From Stentor roeselii (taxonomy: Eukaryota; Ciliophora; Heterotrichea; Heterotrichida; Stentoridae), in the NCBI GenBank assembly GCA_006503475.1, contig RSEH01000010.1, forward strand, positions 124,001-188,000: a stretch of DNA of 64,000 nt, given 5' to 3'. Of the stretch, positions 28,666 to 62,130 are shown piece by piece; position 1 is the first letter of the stretch, and each line of letters starts with the position of its first letter. The translations under genes were made by a program, and so were the position numbers. The notes under the pieces were generated by a model. It had not been told where the DNA came from. It did not search any database and saw nothing but the letters and a program-made list of their open reading frames with translations.

Positions 28666-30234
28666 ATGGATAGAATGTCTTTTATGATTTTTAATACTAT
28701 AAAGAATGTCTTTTATAAATCAATGGATACTGGATCCATTATCAATAAACTCAAAGGATCGTTTAGGAAATCTCTTTTGATGCAAATTTTATTATTGTCG
28801 CTTAGATATCGCATACAGAAATATCGAGGTAAAGCGGCTGTGGCTATTCAGAAGTACATCAGAGGGTATAATGTTAGGAAGGATCTTGGATTTGCTAGAC
28901 CTTCTAAACTTTCGCTTTTAATTAAGTGGCAGGATCCAGCTCAAAGTGTTTCTTTTGCTGGGTCGTTTTCTGAACCTCCCTGGGGAGTTCAAATCCCAAT
29001 GAAAAAGAGTCGATTTCTAAACTACCACATCTCCCCTTACTTTATCGAAAACTCTTTAAAGCCAGGTAGATACTACTTAAAGTTCATTCTCGAAAACGAC
29101 TGGGTCTGCAACAACCGAATGCAAACCTCAATAGACCTAAACCAAAACATGAACAACCTAATCGAAGTCCTAAAAGAAAAGCGCTACGTTCCACGTCCTC
29201 ACAGTTCACGAAACTTGGTCCCAGACGTATTCCGAATGTCTTCAAAGCCATTCAAAAAGCCTGAAATTCCTCGAGTAAGTTCAGTTGAACATAACACCCT
29301 ACGTCCATTGAAATTCTTAAAAGAAGACAAAAACTCTAAAAAGTTGAAATTAATCTTCGGCTCTTTCATGGCCGCACATCCCAAATCACGTTTCGCTCCT
29401 TTAGAAAGCACGAATTCAGCAGATGCTCTTCTTGCAGATGAAGGTCTTCAGATCTTTGGAGTCGCCGACGGAGTCGGCGAATGGGAAACTTTTGGACTGG
29501 ACCCAGGACTGTTTCCAAAGGAACTTATGAGGTTTTTTACCGAAGGGTATCGAGAAGCAGTTGAAGAAATTAATGGAAAAGTCGGAGATATCTGCCCGAT
29601 CTTGAAGATTTTACTGTCAGAAGCGTATTTAAAGACTAGCAGCTATGGAAGCTCCACAGTACTTTTAGGAGTCTTGCAAAATAACACCTTGTATACGATT
29701 TCTTTAGGAGATTCTACTTTTGTTGTGTTAAGACAACGGGAAAAAAGGGCGAAGTTGTTTGAAGTGTTTCGACTTACTGAGCAACAACATTCTTTTAACT
29801 GTCCTTTTCAACTTGCACGATTTCCTGAACCGGACCAATACGAGATACTTATTAAAAAAGGGTTAAATTCTTTTGTTTCACTTTTGAAAAGGTCGAATTT
29901 AGAAATGCAGGATAAACCTCAAGATGCGAATTCTGAGATTTTTCATTTGATGGAAGGAGATATCATTGTTGCTGCATCTGATGGACTTTTTGATAACTTG
30001 TTTGATGAGGATATTATTAAGTTTGCGGAGACTTTCCTTGGGTATGAACTTTCTGATGAGGAGTATTGTAATAAACTTGCAAAGGAACTTGTTTGTAAAG
30101 CTGTTCAGAAAGGATGGGATACCACTTATAAGTCACCTTTTAGCAAAAATGCTGCAAAGTTTGGACAGAGGTATATTGGAGGGAAACTTGATGATACTAC
30201 TGTTGTTGTTGCTTTGGTGACTGAGGATTTATAA
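28666..30234 (+). CDS. IQ motif - CBM48-like - PP2C (PTC7-type) phosphatase fusion
   Basis: This is a 522-aa protein. Residues 57-72 (AAVAIQKYIRGYNVRK) form an IQ calmodulin-binding motif. Residues about 83-170 read as an AMPK/CBM48-type glycogen-binding beta-sandwich: LLIKWQDPAQSVSFAGSF, WGVQIPM, LKPGRYYLKFILENDWVCNN. Residues about 225-522 are a PP2C phosphatase of PTC7 type with GVADGVGEWE, AASDGLFDNLFDED and LDDTTVVVAL supplying metal-binding aspartates. All parts lie in one uninterrupted frame. A Ca2+/calmodulin- and polysaccharide-linked phosphatase is a reasonable inference. The frame starts 18 bp after the USP gene. Confidence 0.83.
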   Translation: MDRMSFMIFNTIKNVFYKSMDTGSIINKLKGSFRKSLLMQILLLSLRYRIQKYRGKAAVAIQKYIRGYNVRKDLGFARPSKLSLLIKWQDPAQSVSFAGSFSEPPWGVQIPMKKSRFLNYHISPYFIENSLKPGRYYLKFILENDWVCNNRMQTSIDLNQNMNNLIEVLKEKRYVPRPHSSRNLVPDVFRMSSKPFKKPEIPRVSSVEHNTLRPLKFLKEDKNSKKLKLIFGSFMAAHPKSRFAPLESTNSADALLADEGLQIFGVADGVGEWETFGLDPGLFPKELMRFFTEGYREAVEEINGKVGDICPILKILLSEAYLKTSSYGSSTVLLGVLQNNTLYTISLGDSTFVVLRQREKRAKLFEVFRLTEQQHSFNCPFQLARFPEPDQYEILIKKGLNSFVSLLKRSNLEMQDKPQDANSEIFHLMEGDIIVAASDGLFDNLFDEDIIKFAETFLGYELSDEEYCNKLAKELVCKAVQKGWDTTYKSPFSKNAAKFGQRYIGGKLDDTTVVVALVTEDL

Positions 30235-30697: not shown

Positions 30698-30994
30698 TTA
30701 TTGCAATATACAGGAGCACATTTTCTTCAGCCTTTTTTTTCTTCTCAGTTTCTTTTTTCGTTTTTCGTACTTTTTAAGAGTGTTTTCTTCAATGCTGCCA
30801 TAGTCGATGTCTAGTTCAACTTGGTCGTACTCGATGATGCTTTCGATCGGTCTTTCAAGGATTTCGTCTTTGAAAGAAATTTTTTGTTCTAAGTAGCGAA
30901 ACTTGTTACCGAAGCGGTCTTGTCTTGATGGTGAACAGTCTGAATCGTTTTGTACGAGAATAGGCTTGGGAAATGTTTTGAAGCTACCTGACAT
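30698..30994 (-). CDS. Small polybasic protein with C-terminal CaaX-type motif
   Basis: This 98-aa frame has an acidic centre (IIEYDQVELDIDYGSIEEN). It is followed by a strongly basic stretch (KKYEKRKKKLRRKKRLKK) and ends MCSCILQ. The last four residues CILQ fit a farnesylation CaaX box, with a second Cys two residues upstream as a possible palmitoylation site. Polybasic sequence plus CaaX is the standard plasma-membrane targeting signal of small GTPases, but no GTPase domain is present here. Confidence 0.6.
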   Translation of the reverse strand: MSGSFKTFPKPILVQNDSDCSPSRQDRFGNKFRYLEQKISFKDEILERPIESIIEYDQVELDIDYGSIEENTLKKYEKRKKKLRRKKRLKKMCSCILQ

Positions 30995-31056: not shown

Positions 31057-32022
31057 ATGTTGGTCATGTACACTTTGCAGAGTGACAAGTCTAAAGAGTT
31101 CAACGGTTTCCTAGTGACTGCCGAGAACCAAGAGCTGACAGTAGGTGACATAAAACGTCAGCTTCCCTTAAAAGGTAACTTTTACATGCGGTTCAAAACG
31201 ATCCTCCAAGAAGAAGTCCCTCCAATATCAGTCTGGCTAGACGGTTTAGACGACTTGGCTCCAGTTCCAACATTCAAAGACAACATAATGATAAAAGTTC
31301 TTCAACTTCCCCCATTCGAAACTTCCCAAATTCCAAGAAAATTATACAAACAATTCAAATCCTTCGAAATAAAAATAACCACTTCAAAGCCATCAGAGCG
31401 CAAGCAAAGTGACTTGATCGGCGAGTACTCAAATCATTCAAAACACTCAGAAAGGTCTCATTCAGCCCATCAAAACTTCGCCGACTTCTCAAAATACTCA
31501 GAACCTGCAAAAAAGCCCTTCGACCCGATGGGGGACTTTCTATCAGCTCAGCCGAATCACCACAAGCAAGTCGCTTCGAAGCCTAAGGACCCGACAGACG
31601 GTCTTACTTCAGAGCAGTTGAAAAAGCGACTTGAAGACAAGATAAACATGCAGGTCAATAAAAAGACTGAAGAAGTTCAGAAGATCTGGCGTGAAGAAGT
31701 CAATTTAAGAAGTGAAAAACTCGACGCTGAGAAAGAATTCAGTGAAAAATTGAATAACTGGGAAAGTCGAAATCATCAGAAAAATAATATAAGGGCTTTA
31801 CTTGCGACTATGCATAATGTGCTTTGGAAAGACTCTGGGTGGGAAGCTATTGGACCTGGGGACTTGATAACTAACGCGCAGGTTAAACTTGCTTATCATA
31901 AGTCTTTGAATATCATTCACCCTGATAAGCACCAGAATGATCCACCAGGTATTCGATATGTGGCTGAACGTGTATTTAGCGCTGTCAATGAAGCGTTCAA
32001 AAAGTTTAGAAATAATCCTTAG
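31057..32022 (+). CDS. Auxilin-like J-domain protein with N-terminal DIX-like domain
   Basis: The frame is open from 31033, but the first ATG is at 31057 (321 aa). Residues 1-82 follow the DIX pattern: VMYTLQ strand, LTVGDIKRQL, KGNFYMRFK, VSVWLDGLDD-type acidic turn, VPTFKDNIMIKVLQL. The middle is Ser/Pro/His-rich, then a coiled coil (about 195-245). The C-terminus is an auxilin-type J-domain with HPD at 288-290 in NIIHPDKHQND, preceded by LWKDSGWEAIGPGDL. Auxilins recruit Hsp70 to uncoat clathrin. A polymerising DIX head on an auxilin J-domain is unusual. A ubiquitin-like or PB1 fold is the alternative for the N-terminus. Confidence 0.78.
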   Translation: MLVMYTLQSDKSKEFNGFLVTAENQELTVGDIKRQLPLKGNFYMRFKTILQEEVPPISVWLDGLDDLAPVPTFKDNIMIKVLQLPPFETSQIPRKLYKQFKSFEIKITTSKPSERKQSDLIGEYSNHSKHSERSHSAHQNFADFSKYSEPAKKPFDPMGDFLSAQPNHHKQVASKPKDPTDGLTSEQLKKRLEDKINMQVNKKTEEVQKIWREEVNLRSEKLDAEKEFSEKLNNWESRNHQKNNIRALLATMHNVLWKDSGWEAIGPGDLITNAQVKLAYHKSLNIIHPDKHQNDPPGIRYVAERVFSAVNEAFKKFRNNP

Positions 32023-32296: not shown

Positions 32297-34741
32297 ATGT
32301 CTGACCAGAACAAGCGCTCAAACCAGGCCTCAGGTCCAGAGATGAAAACAACCGGAAAAATAGGAGGAGAATTCCAAAAAAGCCAAAACATCGAGTACCT
32401 CACATCACGAGGAGAGTTATTCGAAGAATTCTACAAGTCTTACCAGTCCCACCAGGCCTCTCTGCCTTCAGAGGCGATTTCAATAACCCTTCCAAATGGC
32501 TTGGTAAAGACAGGGACTTCTTTCAAGACGACTCCTTTGGACATCGCGAAAGAAATAAGCCGAAGCCTGGCAGAAAGAGTCTTGGTTGCAAAGGTAAAGT
32601 ACAGCAGAAGACTGACCACTGACCAGATAGTCTGCGCAGATGAAGACCATGAAGAAGTAAAAGACCCAGAGTTCGAATTGGTTGACTTGTTCAGGCCTTT
32701 GGAAGGTGACTGTTTAATGCACTTGCTTACTTTTGATGACGCTGAAGGAAAAATGGTCTTTTGGCACTCCTCGGCTCATATCTTAGGAGCGAGTTTAGAA
32801 AAAGTCTACGGCTCGCATCTTTGCATCGGCCCACCTTTGAGCCCTGGGTTTTTTTACGACTCTTATATGGGACAACAGCATTTAAGTCGTGAGAATTACG
32901 AGGAAATCAACAAGTCTGCCCAGGAAGTCATATCAAAAAAGTTCCCTTTTCAAAGAATTGTTCTGTCAAAAGACCAGGCTCTTCAGTTGTTCAGTAACAA
33001 CCCCTTTAAAGTCCAGTTAATTCAGAATAAAATCCCTGAAGGAGGAAAAACTACTGCTTATCGATGTGGGCATCTTATTGATCTTTGCACTGGACCTCAT
33101 GTACTTGATACTGGAAAAATCAAAGCTTTTGCTGTTACGAATAATTCTTCGTCGTATTGGCTGGGAAAGGCTGAAAATGATTCTTTGCAAAGGGTCTATG
33201 GAGTCTCTTTTCCTAGTAAAAAAGAACTGGATGAATATATTCAACTTCAGGAAGAAGCTGAAAGAAGGGATCATCGAAGGGTTGGAACTGCTCAGGGACT
33301 TTATTTTTGGCATCCTTTTGCTGCTGGAAGCACTTTTTTTGAACAGAATGGAGCTAGGATTTATAATAAGTTGATTGAACTTATTAGGGGGGAATATGCC
33401 GTTAGGGGATTCATTGAAGTTCATAGTCCGAATTTGTTTTCTGCTAATCTTTGGAAGACTTCTGGACATTATGCGAAGTATAAGGATGATATGTTTATGT
33501 TTGATATTGAAGGGCAGGAATATGGAATGAAACCTATGAATTGTCCTGGACATTGTCTTATTTTTGATCATACTTTAAGGTCTTATAAAGATTTGCCGTT
33601 GAGAATTTCTGAATTTGGAGTACTGCATCGAAATGAACTGTCTGGAGCTTTGACTGGATTAACCCGTGTAAGAAGATTCGTTCAAGACGACTGCCACATT
33701 TTCTGCAGAAAAGACCAAATCGAGTCAGAAGTAAACGGTTGTCTAGACTTTTTAGACTACATCTACCGCCTTCTAGGTTTTAACTACGAGCTAGAGTTAT
33801 CAACAAGGCCAGAGTCCGGTTTAGGAAGCAAAGAGCTCTGGGAAATAGCTGAAAACCAACTATCCAAAAGTTTAGACAAGCTCGGCAAGCCCTGGAAGAT
33901 AAACCCAGGCGACGGTGCCTTTTACGGTCCAAAGATCGACATAAAAGTCTACGACGCATTAAAAAGAAAGCATCAATGCGGAACAATCCAACTAGACTTC
34001 AACCTTCCGAAGCGTTTTAACTTACAATACAAGACAGGCACTCCCGACAAAGAATCAGAAAATGAAATAATTGAATACCCTGACATGATCGAGCAACATG
34101 TGAAAGTCGGCTTCGAAAGGCCAGTCATCATCCATCGAGCGGTTTTAGGCTCTCTTGAAAGAATGATTGCGATTCTCACAGAGCAGACTGGAGGCAAATG
34201 GCCGTTTTGGTTGAATCCGAAGCAAGTCGCTCTTCTTCCTGTATCAGAACTCCATTTGGACTTCGCTAATCGAGTGAAAAATCGACTTCTTTTGGAAGGG
34301 TTTTTCGCTGAAGTGGACACTGCTAGTCTTACATTGAATAAAAAGATCAGAAATGCCCAAATCGAGCAGTTTAGTTACATTGCAGTCATTGGACATGATG
34401 AAGTTGAAGCAAAAACTGTTGATGTCAGGGATAGAGACACTAATGCAAGCCTTGGAAAAATGAAGATCTCGGAATTTGTCGCTTTTCTCAATCAACAGAT
34501 GCCCAAACCTTCAGAAGCTCGAGTAAAACTTGAAGGTGAAGCGTTTTTTGAAGAGGAAGTCAAAGTCGTCACTAGTCTTTCTTTACCCCTGTTGAATGAA
34601 ACTCTTGAAAGAAATACTTTCATTACTGGAAATCAGGTTTCCGCTGAAGATTGGAAGGTTTTCACGTCGATTAAGAAATTAAATGCAGAAAAGTACCCGC
34701 ATGTTGCCAGGTGGTTCAATCATTTGAAGTCGATTAGTTAA
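32297..34741 (+). CDS. Threonyl-tRNA synthetase with C-terminal GST-C-like extension
   Basis: This 814-aa cytosolic class II synthetase has the usual order. A TGS domain is present (about 55-135, ISITLPNGLVKTG). The editing/SAD domain follows (HSSAHILGASLEKVYG ... YRCGHLIDLCTGPHV). The catalytic core contains MNCPGHCLIF, HRNELSGALTGLTRVRRFVQDD and GAFYGPKIDIKV, and an anticodon-binding domain comes next. The last roughly 75 residues (LPLLNETLERNTFITGNQVS ... YPHVARWFNHLKS) follow the C-terminal helical half of GST-like domains found in other multi-synthetase-complex enzymes. That tail is not part of standard ThrRS. Confidence 0.95.
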   Translation: MSDQNKRSNQASGPEMKTTGKIGGEFQKSQNIEYLTSRGELFEEFYKSYQSHQASLPSEAISITLPNGLVKTGTSFKTTPLDIAKEISRSLAERVLVAKVKYSRRLTTDQIVCADEDHEEVKDPEFELVDLFRPLEGDCLMHLLTFDDAEGKMVFWHSSAHILGASLEKVYGSHLCIGPPLSPGFFYDSYMGQQHLSRENYEEINKSAQEVISKKFPFQRIVLSKDQALQLFSNNPFKVQLIQNKIPEGGKTTAYRCGHLIDLCTGPHVLDTGKIKAFAVTNNSSSYWLGKAENDSLQRVYGVSFPSKKELDEYIQLQEEAERRDHRRVGTAQGLYFWHPFAAGSTFFEQNGARIYNKLIELIRGEYAVRGFIEVHSPNLFSANLWKTSGHYAKYKDDMFMFDIEGQEYGMKPMNCPGHCLIFDHTLRSYKDLPLRISEFGVLHRNELSGALTGLTRVRRFVQDDCHIFCRKDQIESEVNGCLDFLDYIYRLLGFNYELELSTRPESGLGSKELWEIAENQLSKSLDKLGKPWKINPGDGAFYGPKIDIKVYDALKRKHQCGTIQLDFNLPKRFNLQYKTGTPDKESENEIIEYPDMIEQHVKVGFERPVIIHRAVLGSLERMIAILTEQTGGKWPFWLNPKQVALLPVSELHLDFANRVKNRLLLEGFFAEVDTASLTLNKKIRNAQIEQFSYIAVIGHDEVEAKTVDVRDRDTNASLGKMKISEFVAFLNQQMPKPSEARVKLEGEAFFEEEVKVVTSLSLPLLNETLERNTFITGNQVSAEDWKVFTSIKKLNAEKYPHVARWFNHLKSIS

Positions 34742-49988: not shown

Positions 49989-50729
49989 CTATCTAGAAAA
50001 TGAACTTCCTACAGTGAAAGATGTTCTTGCTGCAAACAAAGTAGTACTATCTTTTTGAGAAGTGCAGTGCTTACCAAGACAAGCTTTAAAACTTACAAAA
50101 TATTGACCATCTTGAAAAGGGTATCCTGGAATTAAATCATAATTAGTATCAAAAGTGTACTCAATATAGTAACTGTTTGGATTGAGTTTGTGAACAGGCA
50201 TAATTTCTTCAGCCATAAAATCATCCTCATAATAAACCCTAATTCGAATCTCCCAGTCAGGCACAACTTTCTTTGTAGTGAAATGCAAAAATACTCTAAA
50301 AATTTCTCCCATTTCCCCAGACACTGGAGAGCTTTCAGCAAGATCAAGTTTAACATCATGGTCAGGAAGTTCACAAGCATGAATAGCAATACAAAAATCA
50401 TTAACTGATTCGACTTCTAGAGTATCATTAACATAACTTTCTATTTGATTTCTTATTCCATGGCAAGTTTGAGAGCATACAACATAATACCAAAAGCCCA
50501 AGCCATAGCAATATTCATCACAATCATATTCGAACGTATCCAAAGCAGAATACAAACCGTCTTCTTTAAGCGCATCAATAACTGCAGTACTCATAACATT
50601 TTTACACACAGTGCAATATCCTAGTTGAAGGTTTTTCTCTGCTCTGGAATTTTCATGAAGCTTAATTTCAAAAGCATTGCAAATAACAAGCAGCAAGACA
50701 AGAGAGAAGACTGACTGTTTGAATGACAT
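49989..50729 (-). CDS. Secreted saposin-B-like protein, paralogue A
   Basis: This 246-aa protein has a signal peptide (about 1-19, FKQSVFSLVLLLVICNAF). A saposin-B-like domain (about 35-115) follows with the cysteine pattern YCTVCKNV ... CDEYC ... VVCSQTC ... FCIAIHAC. The last 125 residues form a beta-rich C-terminal domain (WEIRIRVYYEDDFMAEEIMP ... VSFKACLGKHCTSQ). Saposin-like proteins bind lipids and can open membranes. Dictyostelium countin and amoebapores are distant comparisons. The paralogue at 52203 shares both domains, including the ACLGKxC motif near the C-terminus. Confidence 0.75.
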   Translation of the reverse strand: MSFKQSVFSLVLLLVICNAFEIKLHENSRAEKNLQLGYCTVCKNVMSTAVIDALKEDGLYSALDTFEYDCDEYCYGLGFWYYVVCSQTCHGIRNQIESYVNDTLEVESVNDFCIAIHACELPDHDVKLDLAESSPVSGEMGEIFRVFLHFTTKKVVPDWEIRIRVYYEDDFMAEEIMPVHKLNPNSYYIEYTFDTNYDLIPGYPFQDGQYFVSFKACLGKHCTSQKDSTTLFAARTSFTVGSSFSR

Positions 50730-51477: not shown

Positions 51478-52203
51478 TTACTGAAGTATAATAACGGAAT
51501 TCACTGAGAACAGTACTACCGGTTTAGGTTGAGAGCTGCAATTCTTTCCAAGACAAGCATGGTAATAGTAGTGATAATCTCCTTTACGATATGGCATTCC
51601 TGGCTTCATGGTATTATTCGTTAAAAGATTGTAAGATAGAAAATCTTCTCCCTTGTAAGTGTTACTAAAAATAAATTTTTTATCGAATAAAAACATAGTT
51701 TTATAGTAAAATGAAAGCACTGTTTCCCATGCACCAATATAATCATTTACAGTATAATCAATAGTTAAGATAAACTTTTGTCCAATTTTTCCTTTAGGAG
51801 GTGTTGTGTATATATCACTCACGTGAATAAGTGACCCAGGAGGTGTGCAAGCATGAATTGCATAGCAAAAGTCATCTGTTGTATTGATTTTAACAAGTTT
51901 AGTTGAAAACATTTCAACTTTTTTTCTGAAAGCGTCACAACCTTTTATGCAAATAAAGTCGTAAACCGGATTTACAGTAAAGCAATGAAGATTGCAGCTC
52001 TTTTGTAATGCATTCAGTGTTTGGTTTAACCCTTCTTTGTTCAGTATTTGAATGATTGAATTACTTACTACTTTATGGCATAGGTTGCAAATAGTAGATA
52101 CTTGATTATCTTCAAGATTTTGCAATGAATCCTCTTTTTCGACGTCAGCATTGCACACAAAGACCATAACTAAAAGAATCATCAATGGCTTAGACAACAA
52201 CAT
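51478..52203 (-). CDS. Secreted saposin-B-like protein, paralogue B
   Basis: This 241-aa protein has a signal peptide (LLSKPLMILLVMVFVCNADV). The saposin-like cysteine series is ICNLCHKVV ... CNLHC ... FICIKGC ... FCYAIHAC. A beta-rich C-terminal domain follows (WETVLSFYYKTMFLFDKKFI ... YYYHACLGKNCSSQ). It matches paralogue A in domain order, cysteine spacing and the FCxAIHAC and HACLGKxCxSQ motifs, but overall identity looks low, so the tandem duplication is old. Confidence 0.75.
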   Translation of the reverse strand: MLLSKPLMILLVMVFVCNADVEKEDSLQNLEDNQVSTICNLCHKVVSNSIIQILNKEGLNQTLNALQKSCNLHCFTVNPVYDFICIKGCDAFRKKVEMFSTKLVKINTTDDFCYAIHACTPPGSLIHVSDIYTTPPKGKIGQKFILTIDYTVNDYIGAWETVLSFYYKTMFLFDKKFIFSNTYKGEDFLSYNLLTNNTMKPGMPYRKGDYHYYYHACLGKNCSSQPKPVVLFSVNSVIILQ

Positions 52204-60648: not shown

Positions 60649-62130
60649 TTACCTATTCTCTAAAATCTTTGCTATTTGTATTATCGCTGCTTTACTTTCA
60701 GGTGTTAACTCCTGTCCGAACCGTGAGTTGTCTACATCAGAAGCAAGGTGTGGGCAGGCTTTTAAGATTCTTGCTAGTTTTCTTAACTGGTCATCTGCAT
60801 CATCAAAATGTGGAACTGGAGACTTGTTTCTTAGTTCTTCAATATATTTATATTTTTCAGTTAGGATTCCTTTGTATAAGTGAATCGAGTCAAGTAGGTC
60901 ATTTGAAAGTCCTGAGTCTTCTAGTCTTCCATCGAAATTAGCAGAGCACAACTCTTGTATATAAGGAATCAAGCAATGACTTAAATGTGTAGACGAGTCT
61001 CGAGGTAATTCAGTAGGTAAAAAGTCCATACTATAATAAAGAATCGATCCCTCAACATGAGCCTTACAAAGTTCATACATTCGATCATCACCCGTATTAT
61101 AAAGAAAAAAAGGTTCTTCAGGTGTCGTGAATTTTCTACAAACCTCAACAGTTCCCCTCATATCACAAGTAATATCACAAACCCCAAGCAACTTCGGTAA
61201 AAACTTGAAATTCCCAGTAGACAACACCCTAGGAAACCTACTTTCATAATAAAGACAGTTGAAAACAACAGAAAGATATTTTGCATACTTGTTAAAAAAA
61301 ACACTTTCATACATTCCCGGGTTTTGTTCATATTCCTGCCGATTAAACCTTCCTCCATCATTCCTCGAATAAAGTTTCTGAACCGGAAACACAACAATAT
61401 AAATTTGAAACTTCGACTCCGGCCCTACCTTCAAACTTGCAAGTTGATCCGGATTTAAAACCTGATGCGGCAACAAGGACAACATCTCCTGAACCCCTAA
61501 AGAACATCGACCATTGCCGAGGACTCCCCAGACCATCGGAACGATAGGGTCGGGCAGTCCGCCATTAACAATAAATCCAGCGATTTTCGCGATTTCAGTC
61601 CTGATGTCTTTCAAATCTCGATACATATAAGCGAAGCCTTGGTATAAGAATGGAGTGCTCATGTTGCGCATCAAGAGATACTTGCCCAGGCCTTGAAGGA
61701 AGTCCATGACTCCAGCGTTGCCTCCGAACTTTCCTAAAGCCACTGTTCGGGTGCCGTTGTAGTTCTTGATACATTCATAGTCGACTAGAGTGATTCTGTT
61801 CGCGATCATCGAGTCAAGCATCGGCATGTTGTAGGCCTGCGCCTTGAATGTATGTGAAAAAAACATGAAAATACGACCGGGTAGAAAGTTACGAGGAAGG
61901 ACTTCTTTCACTCCTAGAATGAGACTTGCTTGTGATAAGTCTTCTTCTAACTCGGCTCCTGCTGCGATGTATTCAGAATCTTGAAAACAACGGTTGGAGG
62001 AAGGCTGAAGAATCACTTTTATTCCTCGGCTTGAAAGGATTTTCACGTCTGATGGGATTAAAGGCACTCGACATTCCCAGTAGTTTTTGGTTTCTCGCAG
62101 AACTCCGATCACATTTCTTTCGCCTTCCAT
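60649..62130 (-). CDS. Lysine-ketoglutarate reductase, monofunctional (AASS N-terminal half)
   Basis: This enzyme condenses lysine and 2-oxoglutarate to saccharopine, the first step of lysine breakdown. The frame extends upstream, but the first ATG is at 62130 (MEGERNVIGVLRETKNYWEC; 493 aa). Matches to the LKR half of animal and plant AASS include FSHTFKAQAYNMPML, ALGKFGGNAGVMDFLQGLG, GVCDITCDMRGTVE and the final LTEKYKYIEELR. The protein stops where the saccharopine dehydrogenase half would begin, so it is single-function. No strong mitochondrial presequence is seen. Confidence 0.9.
   Translation of the reverse strand: MEGERNVIGVLRETKNYWECRVPLIPSDVKILSSRGIKVILQPSSNRCFQDSEYIAAGAELEEDLSQASLILGVKEVLPRNFLPGRIFMFFSHTFKAQAYNMPMLDSMIANRITLVDYECIKNYNGTRTVALGKFGGNAGVMDFLQGLGKYLLMRNMSTPFLYQGFAYMYRDLKDIRTEIAKIAGFIVNGGLPDPIVPMVWGVLGNGRCSLGVQEMLSLLPHQVLNPDQLASLKVGPESKFQIYIVVFPVQKLYSRNDGGRFNRQEYEQNPGMYESVFFNKYAKYLSVVFNCLYYESRFPRVLSTGNFKFLPKLLGVCDITCDMRGTVEVCRKFTTPEEPFFLYNTGDDRMYELCKAHVEGSILYYSMDFLPTELPRDSSTHLSHCLIPYIQELCSANFDGRLEDSGLSNDLLDSIHLYKGILTEKYKYIEELRNKSPVPHFDDADDQLRKLARILKACPHLASDVDNSRFGQELTPESKAAIIQIAKILENR

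What the first reader, a model, noticed from the sequence alone, without database searches (positions are those of the whole stretch)
31057..32022. DIX-like domain fused to an auxilin J-domain
The first 82 residues follow the strand and helix pattern of DIX domains (LTVGDIKRQL, GNFYMRFK, acidic turn, PTFKDNIMIKV). The last 80 are an auxilin-type J-domain with HPD. DIX domains polymerise head to tail in Dishevelled, Axin and plant SOSEKI proteins. Here polymerisation could cluster an Hsp70 co-chaperone on clathrin coats or cortical structures. I know of no described DIX-auxilin protein.
Basis: partly seen in the sequence, partly recalled or inferred. Interest (0 to 1): 0.72.

Follow-up and report, generated by a model that had tools for sequence, protein, structure and literature searches.

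The report
Ciliate DIX–auxilin co-chaperone (DARTAGNAN type)
A ciliate-like gene joins a self-assembling DIX domain to the J-domain of auxilin, the clathrin-uncoating helper; the pairing is real, but DIX proteins with a J-domain were described in related microbes in 2025, so it is a new member of a known kind.

Summary
One intron-free ORF (31057-32022, +, standard code, 321 aa) carries an N-terminal DIX domain (Pfam PF00778, E 2.8e-9, above the curated cut-off; residues 3-81) and a C-terminal auxilin-type J-domain (best PDB auxilin chain E 1.4e-16, residues 217-320; HPD 288-290). Pfam lists no PB1, UBX or ubiquitin family.

The claim that no such protein is described is wrong: DIX-DnaJ proteins of stramenopiles and alveolates were named DARTAGNAN in 2025; the oomycete one co-purifies with the DIX-only protein ATHOS (PMC12077222).

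New here: the assembly has three detectable DIX genes, this one and two short ATHOS-like ones. No second J-domain close to this one, DIX-kinase or DIX-ELMO protein was found (limits in the report). The ATHOS-like tails and this linker hold FD-type motifs resembling clathrin-adaptor ligands (motif class chosen after the fact).

A lead: Plasmodium clathrin light-chain pulldowns hold a DnaJ and a 177-aa DIX protein at similar counts (PMC12742282).

Best reading: a DIX-clustered auxilin that brings Hsp70 to clathrin coats.

The parts
31057..32022 (+). Intron-free ORF, 321 aa: DIX - linker - auxilin-type J-domain (DARTAGNAN architecture)
31063..31299 (+). DIX domain, residues 3-81
   Evidence: Pfam PF00778 E 2.8e-9; a profile with the two paralogues matches Axin, Dvl2 and Dixin DIX chains; top five Foldseek rows are Axin DIX, at non-significant E
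31519..31539 (+). FDPMGDF (residues 155-161) in the linker: resembles adaptor/clathrin-binding short motifs, function inferred
   Evidence: motif class defined after seeing the sequences
31609..31830 (+). Predicted long helix, residues 185-258, leading into the J-domain
   Evidence: block pLDDT 82-91 for residues 181-230, 76 for 231-240, 61 and lower after that
31705..32016 (+). Auxilin-type J-domain region, residues 217-320
   Evidence: PDB auxilin chains, best E 1.4e-16
31918..31926 (+). HPD signature of the J-domain (residues 288-290)
   Evidence: read from the sequence

Best explanation
The gene encodes an auxilin-type Hsp70 co-chaperone whose N-terminus is a DIX domain, i.e. a protein of DARTAGNAN architecture. 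Most likely the DIX domain assembles head to tail with itself and with the two DIX-only (ATHOS-like) proteins of the same cell. Those partners, and its own linker, carry FD-type motifs that could bind clathrin adaptors. The weak, multivalent assembly concentrates the J-domain on clathrin-coated membranes, where its HPD loop stimulates Hsp70 to strip the coat. Shown here: both domains, two candidate partner genes, clathrin repeats in the genome, and no second J-domain close to this one by direct search. Reported by others in relatives: polymerisation of SAR DIX domains including a ciliate one, ATHOS-DARTAGNAN co-purification, and a DnaJ and a DIX protein in clathrin pulldowns. Inferred: polymerisation, partner binding, motif function and coat removal by this protein.
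For: DIX above the Pfam cut-off; auxilin-type J with HPD. Two ATHOS-like DIX-only ORFs of 153 and 126 aa, both above the DIX cut-off, are the only other DIX places found in the 44.4 Mb assembly (3 of 3 places over the cut-off). Clathrin repeats: 14 of 17 matches lie in two long frames of 1747 and 1764 aa. The J region as query finds itself at 1.1e-68 and next a match at 0.0101. FD[LVIMP][LFMIV] occurs 2, 1 and 1 times in the three non-DIX stretches (66, 38 and 95 aa), with shuffle fractions 0.0002, 0.009 and 0.013; window ORFs of 180 aa or more hold 2 in 13,286 residues, one of the two being this protein's own. In Phytophthora palmivora ATHOS and DARTAGNAN co-purify both ways (PMC12077222). 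SAR DIX domains, Paramecium's among them, are reported to polymerise (PMC7042713 passages). In P. falciparum clathrin light-chain pulldowns a DnaJ (62, 68, 62 counts) and a 177-aa DIX protein (61, 62, 56) stand against 0, 0, 0 in controls (PMC12742282).
Against: No functional data exist for this protein among what I saw. The AlphaFold models are weak (DIX part mean pLDDT 63.2, full length 49.0), so polymerisation interfaces could not be judged on structure. The motif class was defined after seeing the tails. The Plasmodium DnaJ (PF3D7_1411300, 568 aa) was not shown to have a DIX domain or an auxilin-type J in anything I read; in the heavy-chain pulldown counts are lower (9, 10 and 3, 9), and the DIX protein is not significant with AP-1 gamma (2, 0, 0). 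DIX proteins may serve polarity or flagellar-base functions instead: ATHOS sits near the flagellar insertion in zoospores.
Confidence: 0.65

Rival explanations
1. Half of a split GAK: the DIX domain joins this protein to a DIX-NAK-kinase protein (PORTHOS), so that kinase and J-domain together act like cyclin-G-associated kinase.
For: Speculated by the authors who named DARTAGNAN and PORTHOS (PMC12077222).
Against: No DIX-kinase protein was found: the three DIX places lie in this ORF and in two short DIX-only ORFs. This is a limited test: PORTHOS DIX domains have a larger L1 loop and could be missed by the Pfam model, introns could split a gene, and NAK kinases as such were not searched.
Confidence: 0.12
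2. A polarity or cortical scaffold in which the J-domain recruits Hsp70 to basal bodies or cortex, unrelated to clathrin.
For: DIX proteins are polarity scaffolds in plants and animals, and Phytophthora ATHOS lies near the flagellar insertion point (PMC12077222).
Against: The J-domain is closest to auxilin, no second one of that kind was found by direct search in an assembly that has clathrin repeats, and the FD-type motifs point to coats (weak).
Confidence: 0.17
3. The DIX-like part does not polymerise and serves only as a ubiquitin-like docking domain for one partner.
For: It is divergent from animal DIX in single-sequence comparison (Axin rows only at E 0.35-0.47).
Against: It passes the DIX cut-off over nearly the whole profile, and the SAR DIX domains tested by others are reported to polymerise (PMC7042713 passages).
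Confidence: 0.1

Closest known systems
DARTAGNAN (DIX + DnaJ; Kostareli et al. 2025, PMC12077222)
   Same: N-terminal DIX, long middle region, C-terminal DnaJ-type domain; the group is described from stramenopiles and alveolates; here too it occurs beside ATHOS-like DIX-only proteins.
   Different: The parts of the paper that I read call the C-terminal domain DnaJ and compare it with GAK; here it is shown to be closest to auxilin. No DIX-kinase or DIX-ELMO companion was detected in this assembly. Sequence relationship to the named DARTAGNAN clade was not tested.
Auxilin / GAK
   Same: C-terminal J-domain closest to auxilin, with HPD and a preceding predicted helix.
   Different: No PTEN-like or kinase domain; a DIX domain takes the N-terminal place.
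Dishevelled, Axin and Dixin DIX; plant SOSEKI
   Same: DIX domain by profile.
   Different: Pfam shows no other domain of those proteins here; fused to a J-domain. SOSEKI was not compared directly.
ATHOS (DIX-only SAR proteins)
   Same: The two other DIX genes of this assembly (L007, L009) have this layout.
   Different: They lack a J-domain; 26% and 30% identical to the window's DIX.

Membership tests
DIX domain (PF00778) | Score above the curated cut-off over the domain | tested here: met
   37.1 against 22.2 bits, profile 4-77 of 77
DIX domain (PF00778) | Ubiquitin-like DIX fold | tested here: inconclusive
   Low-confidence model (pLDDT 63.2); its top five PDB rows are Axin DIX and 12 of the 50 rows shown (of 552) are DIX entries, but best E is 0.016 and none is below 0.001
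DIX domain (PF00778) | Head-to-tail polymerisation | not testable with these tools
   Needs protein; reported for other SAR DIX domains (PMC7042713 passages)
Auxilin-type J-domain | Closest to auxilin J-domains, with HPD | tested here: met
   Five rows named auxilin at E 1.4e-16 to 2e-14 plus 3ag7 at 5e-14; next J-domain row E 0.68; HPD at 288-290
Auxilin / GAK (whole protein) | Binding to clathrin or adaptors | tested here: inconclusive
   FDPMGDF in the linker; motif class chosen after inspection
Auxilin / GAK (whole protein) | N-terminal kinase or PTEN-like domain of animal forms | tested here: not met
   Pfam at E up to 10 lists neither
DARTAGNAN | N-terminal DIX-like domain and C-terminal DnaJ domain in one protein | tested here: met
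   (Pfam DnaJ itself is below its cut-off; auxilin chains match)
DARTAGNAN | Intrinsically disordered middle region | tested here: inconclusive
   Residues 1-152 have pLDDT under 50 in a single-sequence model, but that includes the DIX part
DARTAGNAN | Falls in the DARTAGNAN clade of the DIX tree | not tested
   No sequences of named DARTAGNAN proteins were available
DARTAGNAN | Binds ATHOS | not testable with these tools
   Co-purification shown for Phytophthora palmivora by others; two ATHOS-like genes exist here

The most novel reading that the evidence does not exclude
In this ciliate the cell's only auxilin is a two-part machine: small DIX proteins with adaptor-binding tails nucleate on clathrin coats, and co-polymerisation through DIX recruits the J-domain protein, so that the local concentration of coat components sets when the coat is removed. 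The same pair would explain the DnaJ and DIX proteins in Plasmodium clathrin pulldowns.
Probability: 0.3. Interest if true: 0.62.

Novelty: new member of a known kind. Interest (0 to 1): 0.42.

Why it matters
It adds what looks like a heterotrich ciliate to the DIX-DnaJ architecture, shows that the J-domain is closest to auxilin and has no close second by direct search of the assembly, and gives the 2025 family a concrete function to test: clathrin uncoating by a polymerising co-chaperone. It also connects two reports: the ATHOS-DARTAGNAN interaction in an oomycete (PMC12077222, April 2025) and a DnaJ plus a DIX protein in Plasmodium clathrin pulldowns (PMC12742282, December 2025), whose held text contains neither 'Kostareli' nor 'Musketeer' and names the two proteins only in Table 1 and its abbreviations. 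If the model is right, an animal and plant polarity module works in these protists as a coat-recognition device.

Tried and rejected
PB1, UBX or ubiquitin fold: no such family in Pfam at E up to 10, and none that I recognise among the 50 of 552 structure rows shown. Chance ORF or gene-model artefact: rejected, one continuous frame. DIX-ELMO (ARAMIS) in this genome: nine ELMO places at E up to 0.01; seven of the nine were scanned as whole frames and none showed DIX at E up to 1; the other two (L020, L021) lie in frames cut by a stop and were not scanned. Second auxilin: 61 DnaJ places at E up to 0.001. The window's own J-domain is not among them, so that list is not a complete test. I looked at two of the 61: a J protein with zinc-ribbon-like cysteines by eye (C46, L035) and an HscB-like protein (C31:84938, L036; name by recall). 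The direct search with the J region is the stronger test; genes split by introns could escape it. Relatives in prokaryote genomes and viral contigs: none confirmed (38 and 184 pattern matches, 0 relatives). A full-length alignment A2 was not used, because the tails do not align. A bacterial-type promoter scan of the upstream gap is of no use here. A MAFFT alignment with Dvl2 and Axin stretches was used only to look at positions; no interface claim rests on it. Literature searches: DIX with auxilin (2 papers, unrelated by title), ciliate (18), DARTAGNAN (6), DnaJ (17, 16 listed), Plasmodium (4), clathrin and polymerization (40, 15 listed); auxilin with Tetrahymena (6) and with ciliate and clathrin (9, 8 listed); gene identifiers (3 and 1). 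Papers seen: PMC12077222, parts 1 and 2 of 3 of the text, no supplements; PMC12742282, abstract, passages, sections 2.2 and 3; PMC7042713, PMC11594657 and PMC12095580, passages only; all others, search listing only.

Full report
Observation. The ORF at 31057-32022 (+) reads open for 321 codons in the standard code, starts with ATG and ends with TAG. It is one continuous frame. From the window's stop-triplet frequency about 8e-6 such stretches are expected in the window. It starts 62 bases from a divergent small ORF (30698-30994, minus strand) and is followed by a threonyl-tRNA synthetase gene at 32297.

Domains. Pfam DIX (PF00778) matches residues 3-81 across profile positions 4-77 of 77, with 33.9 bits for the whole protein and 37.1 bits for residues 1-91, against a cut-off of 22.2. 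No PB1, UBX or ubiquitin-like family is listed at E up to 10. The C-terminus matches auxilin J-domains of solved structures: five rows named auxilin at E 1.4e-16 to 2e-14 (best stretch residues 217-320) and 3ag7 at 5e-14, by recall a plant auxilin-like protein; the next J-domain row is at 0.68. HPD is at residues 288-290. Results against: Pfam's general DnaJ model is below its cut-off, and the single-sequence PDB search with the DIX part alone returned nothing above chance, with five enterotoxin rows (E 0.17-0.18) ranked above three Axin rows (E 0.35-0.47). A profile of the three DIX sequences of this genome does better: all 8 rows at E up to 1 are chains named Axin, Dvl-2 or Dixin, best E 0.0029.

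Structure. AlphaFold on the DIX part with three sequences gave a low-confidence model (mean pLDDT 63.2). Its five best Foldseek rows in the PDB are Axin DIX chains and 12 of the 50 rows shown (of 552) are DIX entries; no match reaches E 0.001. The full-length model is poor (mean pLDDT 49.0) except for part of a long helix, residues 185-258, best in residues 181-230.

Genome context. The window lies in a 44.4 Mb assembly of 522 contigs. One of ten contig ends read ends in repeats of GGGTGTTA (L015), which by recall is the telomere repeat of heterotrich ciliates. ORFs of 180 aa or more in the window end in TAA, TAG and TGA (23, 7 and 3), which fits the standard code. A heterotrich-like ciliate is therefore my reading, not a tool result. 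The DIX model finds three places, all above the cut-off: this gene and two others. The two others are short ORFs of 153 aa (L007) and 126 aa (L009), DIX plus a short tail. They are 26% and 30% identical to the window's DIX; invariant positions include W60, D62, D66 and K80 of the window protein. A passage on the plant DIX interface names a tryptophan and a lysine on the tail surface (W83, K103); I could not align that protein here, so the parallel is only suggestive.

Companions sought. No DIX-kinase ORF appears at the three DIX places. Of nine ELMO places, seven were scanned and none has DIX at E up to 1. Of 17 clathrin-repeat matches, 14 lie in two long frames. The J region used as a query finds itself at 1.1e-68; the next match is at 0.0101. 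Pfam DnaJ lists 61 places at E up to 0.001, without this gene's own, so J-domains are plentiful but none close to this one was found. Introns, or divergence, could hide one.

Tails and linker. The motif FD[LVIMP][LFMIV] occurs twice in the L007 tail, once in the L009 tail and once in the window's linker. Shuffled copies reach these counts in fractions 0.0002, 0.009 and 0.013 of 200,000 trials, and in none of 200,000 for all three together; ORFs of the window have 2 in 13,286 residues, one of them being this protein's own. The motif class was chosen after seeing the sequences, so these fractions overstate the case. That similar motifs bind clathrin and adaptor appendages in animals is recalled.

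Literature. Kostareli et al. 2025 (PMC12077222; parts 1 and 2 of 3 of the text) describe DIX proteins of the SAR supergroup: ATHOS (DIX only), PORTHOS (DIX plus NAK kinase), ARAMIS (DIX plus ELMO) and DARTAGNAN (DIX plus DnaJ), conserved in stramenopiles and alveolates, with ciliates named among the bearers of the group as a whole. ATHOS and DARTAGNAN co-purify in Phytophthora palmivora, and the authors speculate that DARTAGNAN and PORTHOS rebuild a GAK-type activity. The fusion is therefore published. Whether this organism's protein is in their table I could not see. The 2020 Cell paper on SOSEKI (PMC7042713; passages) reports that SAR DIX domains, Paramecium's among them, polymerise. Miao et al. 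2025 (PMC12742282; sections 2.2 and 3) list a DnaJ (PF3D7_1411300, 568 aa) and a DIX protein (PF3D7_1421000, 177 aa) in clathrin light-chain pulldowns with 62, 68, 62 and 61, 62, 56 counts against zero in controls; counts in the heavy-chain pulldown are lower (9, 10 and 3, 9), and with AP-1 gamma the DnaJ is low but significant (3, 5, 4) and the DIX protein is not (2, 0, 0). In the held text the two proteins occur only in that table and its abbreviations. A J-protein review lists PF3D7_1411300 as type III (PMC11594657, passage). I found no held paper other than Miao et al. that names PF3D7_1421000.

Mechanism. Shown: domains, gene set, clathrin repeats. Inferred: DIX-driven co-assembly with the two ATHOS-like proteins, recruitment to coats by FD-type motifs, J-domain stimulation of Hsp70, coat removal. 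In animals, Wnt signalling by Dishevelled and Axin is proposed to take place in clathrin-coated locales (PMC12095580, passages), which makes such a link less surprising.

Verdict. A real and well-formed DIX-auxilin protein; a new member of the DARTAGNAN kind by architecture, clade membership untested. Interest lies in the clathrin reading, which is testable, not in the fusion as such.

Noticed in passing
window 28666-30234 (+): One 522-aa ORF joins an IQ motif (PF00612), an AMPK-type glycogen-binding domain (PF16561, E 1.8e-12) and a PP2C phosphatase match (PF00481), all above their cut-offs: possibly a calmodulin-linked, glycogen-targeted phosphatase.
   Followed up: partly
window 32297-34741 (+): Threonyl-tRNA synthetase with a C-terminal Arc1p_N-like domain (PF21972, 28.7 bits against cut-off 27), an added domain that may dock it in a synthetase complex (inference).
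   Followed up: partly
window 49989-50729 (-) and 51478-52203 (-): Two neighbouring small ORFs, similar by eye, with signal-peptide-like starts and cysteine-rich N-terminal halves; no Pfam family at E up to 0.01.
   Followed up: partly
L007:1492-1953 and L009:1492-1872: Two ATHOS-like DIX-only genes whose tails hold FDVF, FDLLF and FDLF.
   Followed up: yes
L024, L026, L027 (ELMO loci): Long ORFs with a weak C-terminal ELMO domain and long N-terminal regions that look alike by eye: perhaps a lineage-specific ELMO family.
   Followed up: partly
window 60649-62130 (-): ORF with an AlaDh/PNT N-terminal domain but only a partial, sub-threshold C-terminal domain match.
   Followed up: no
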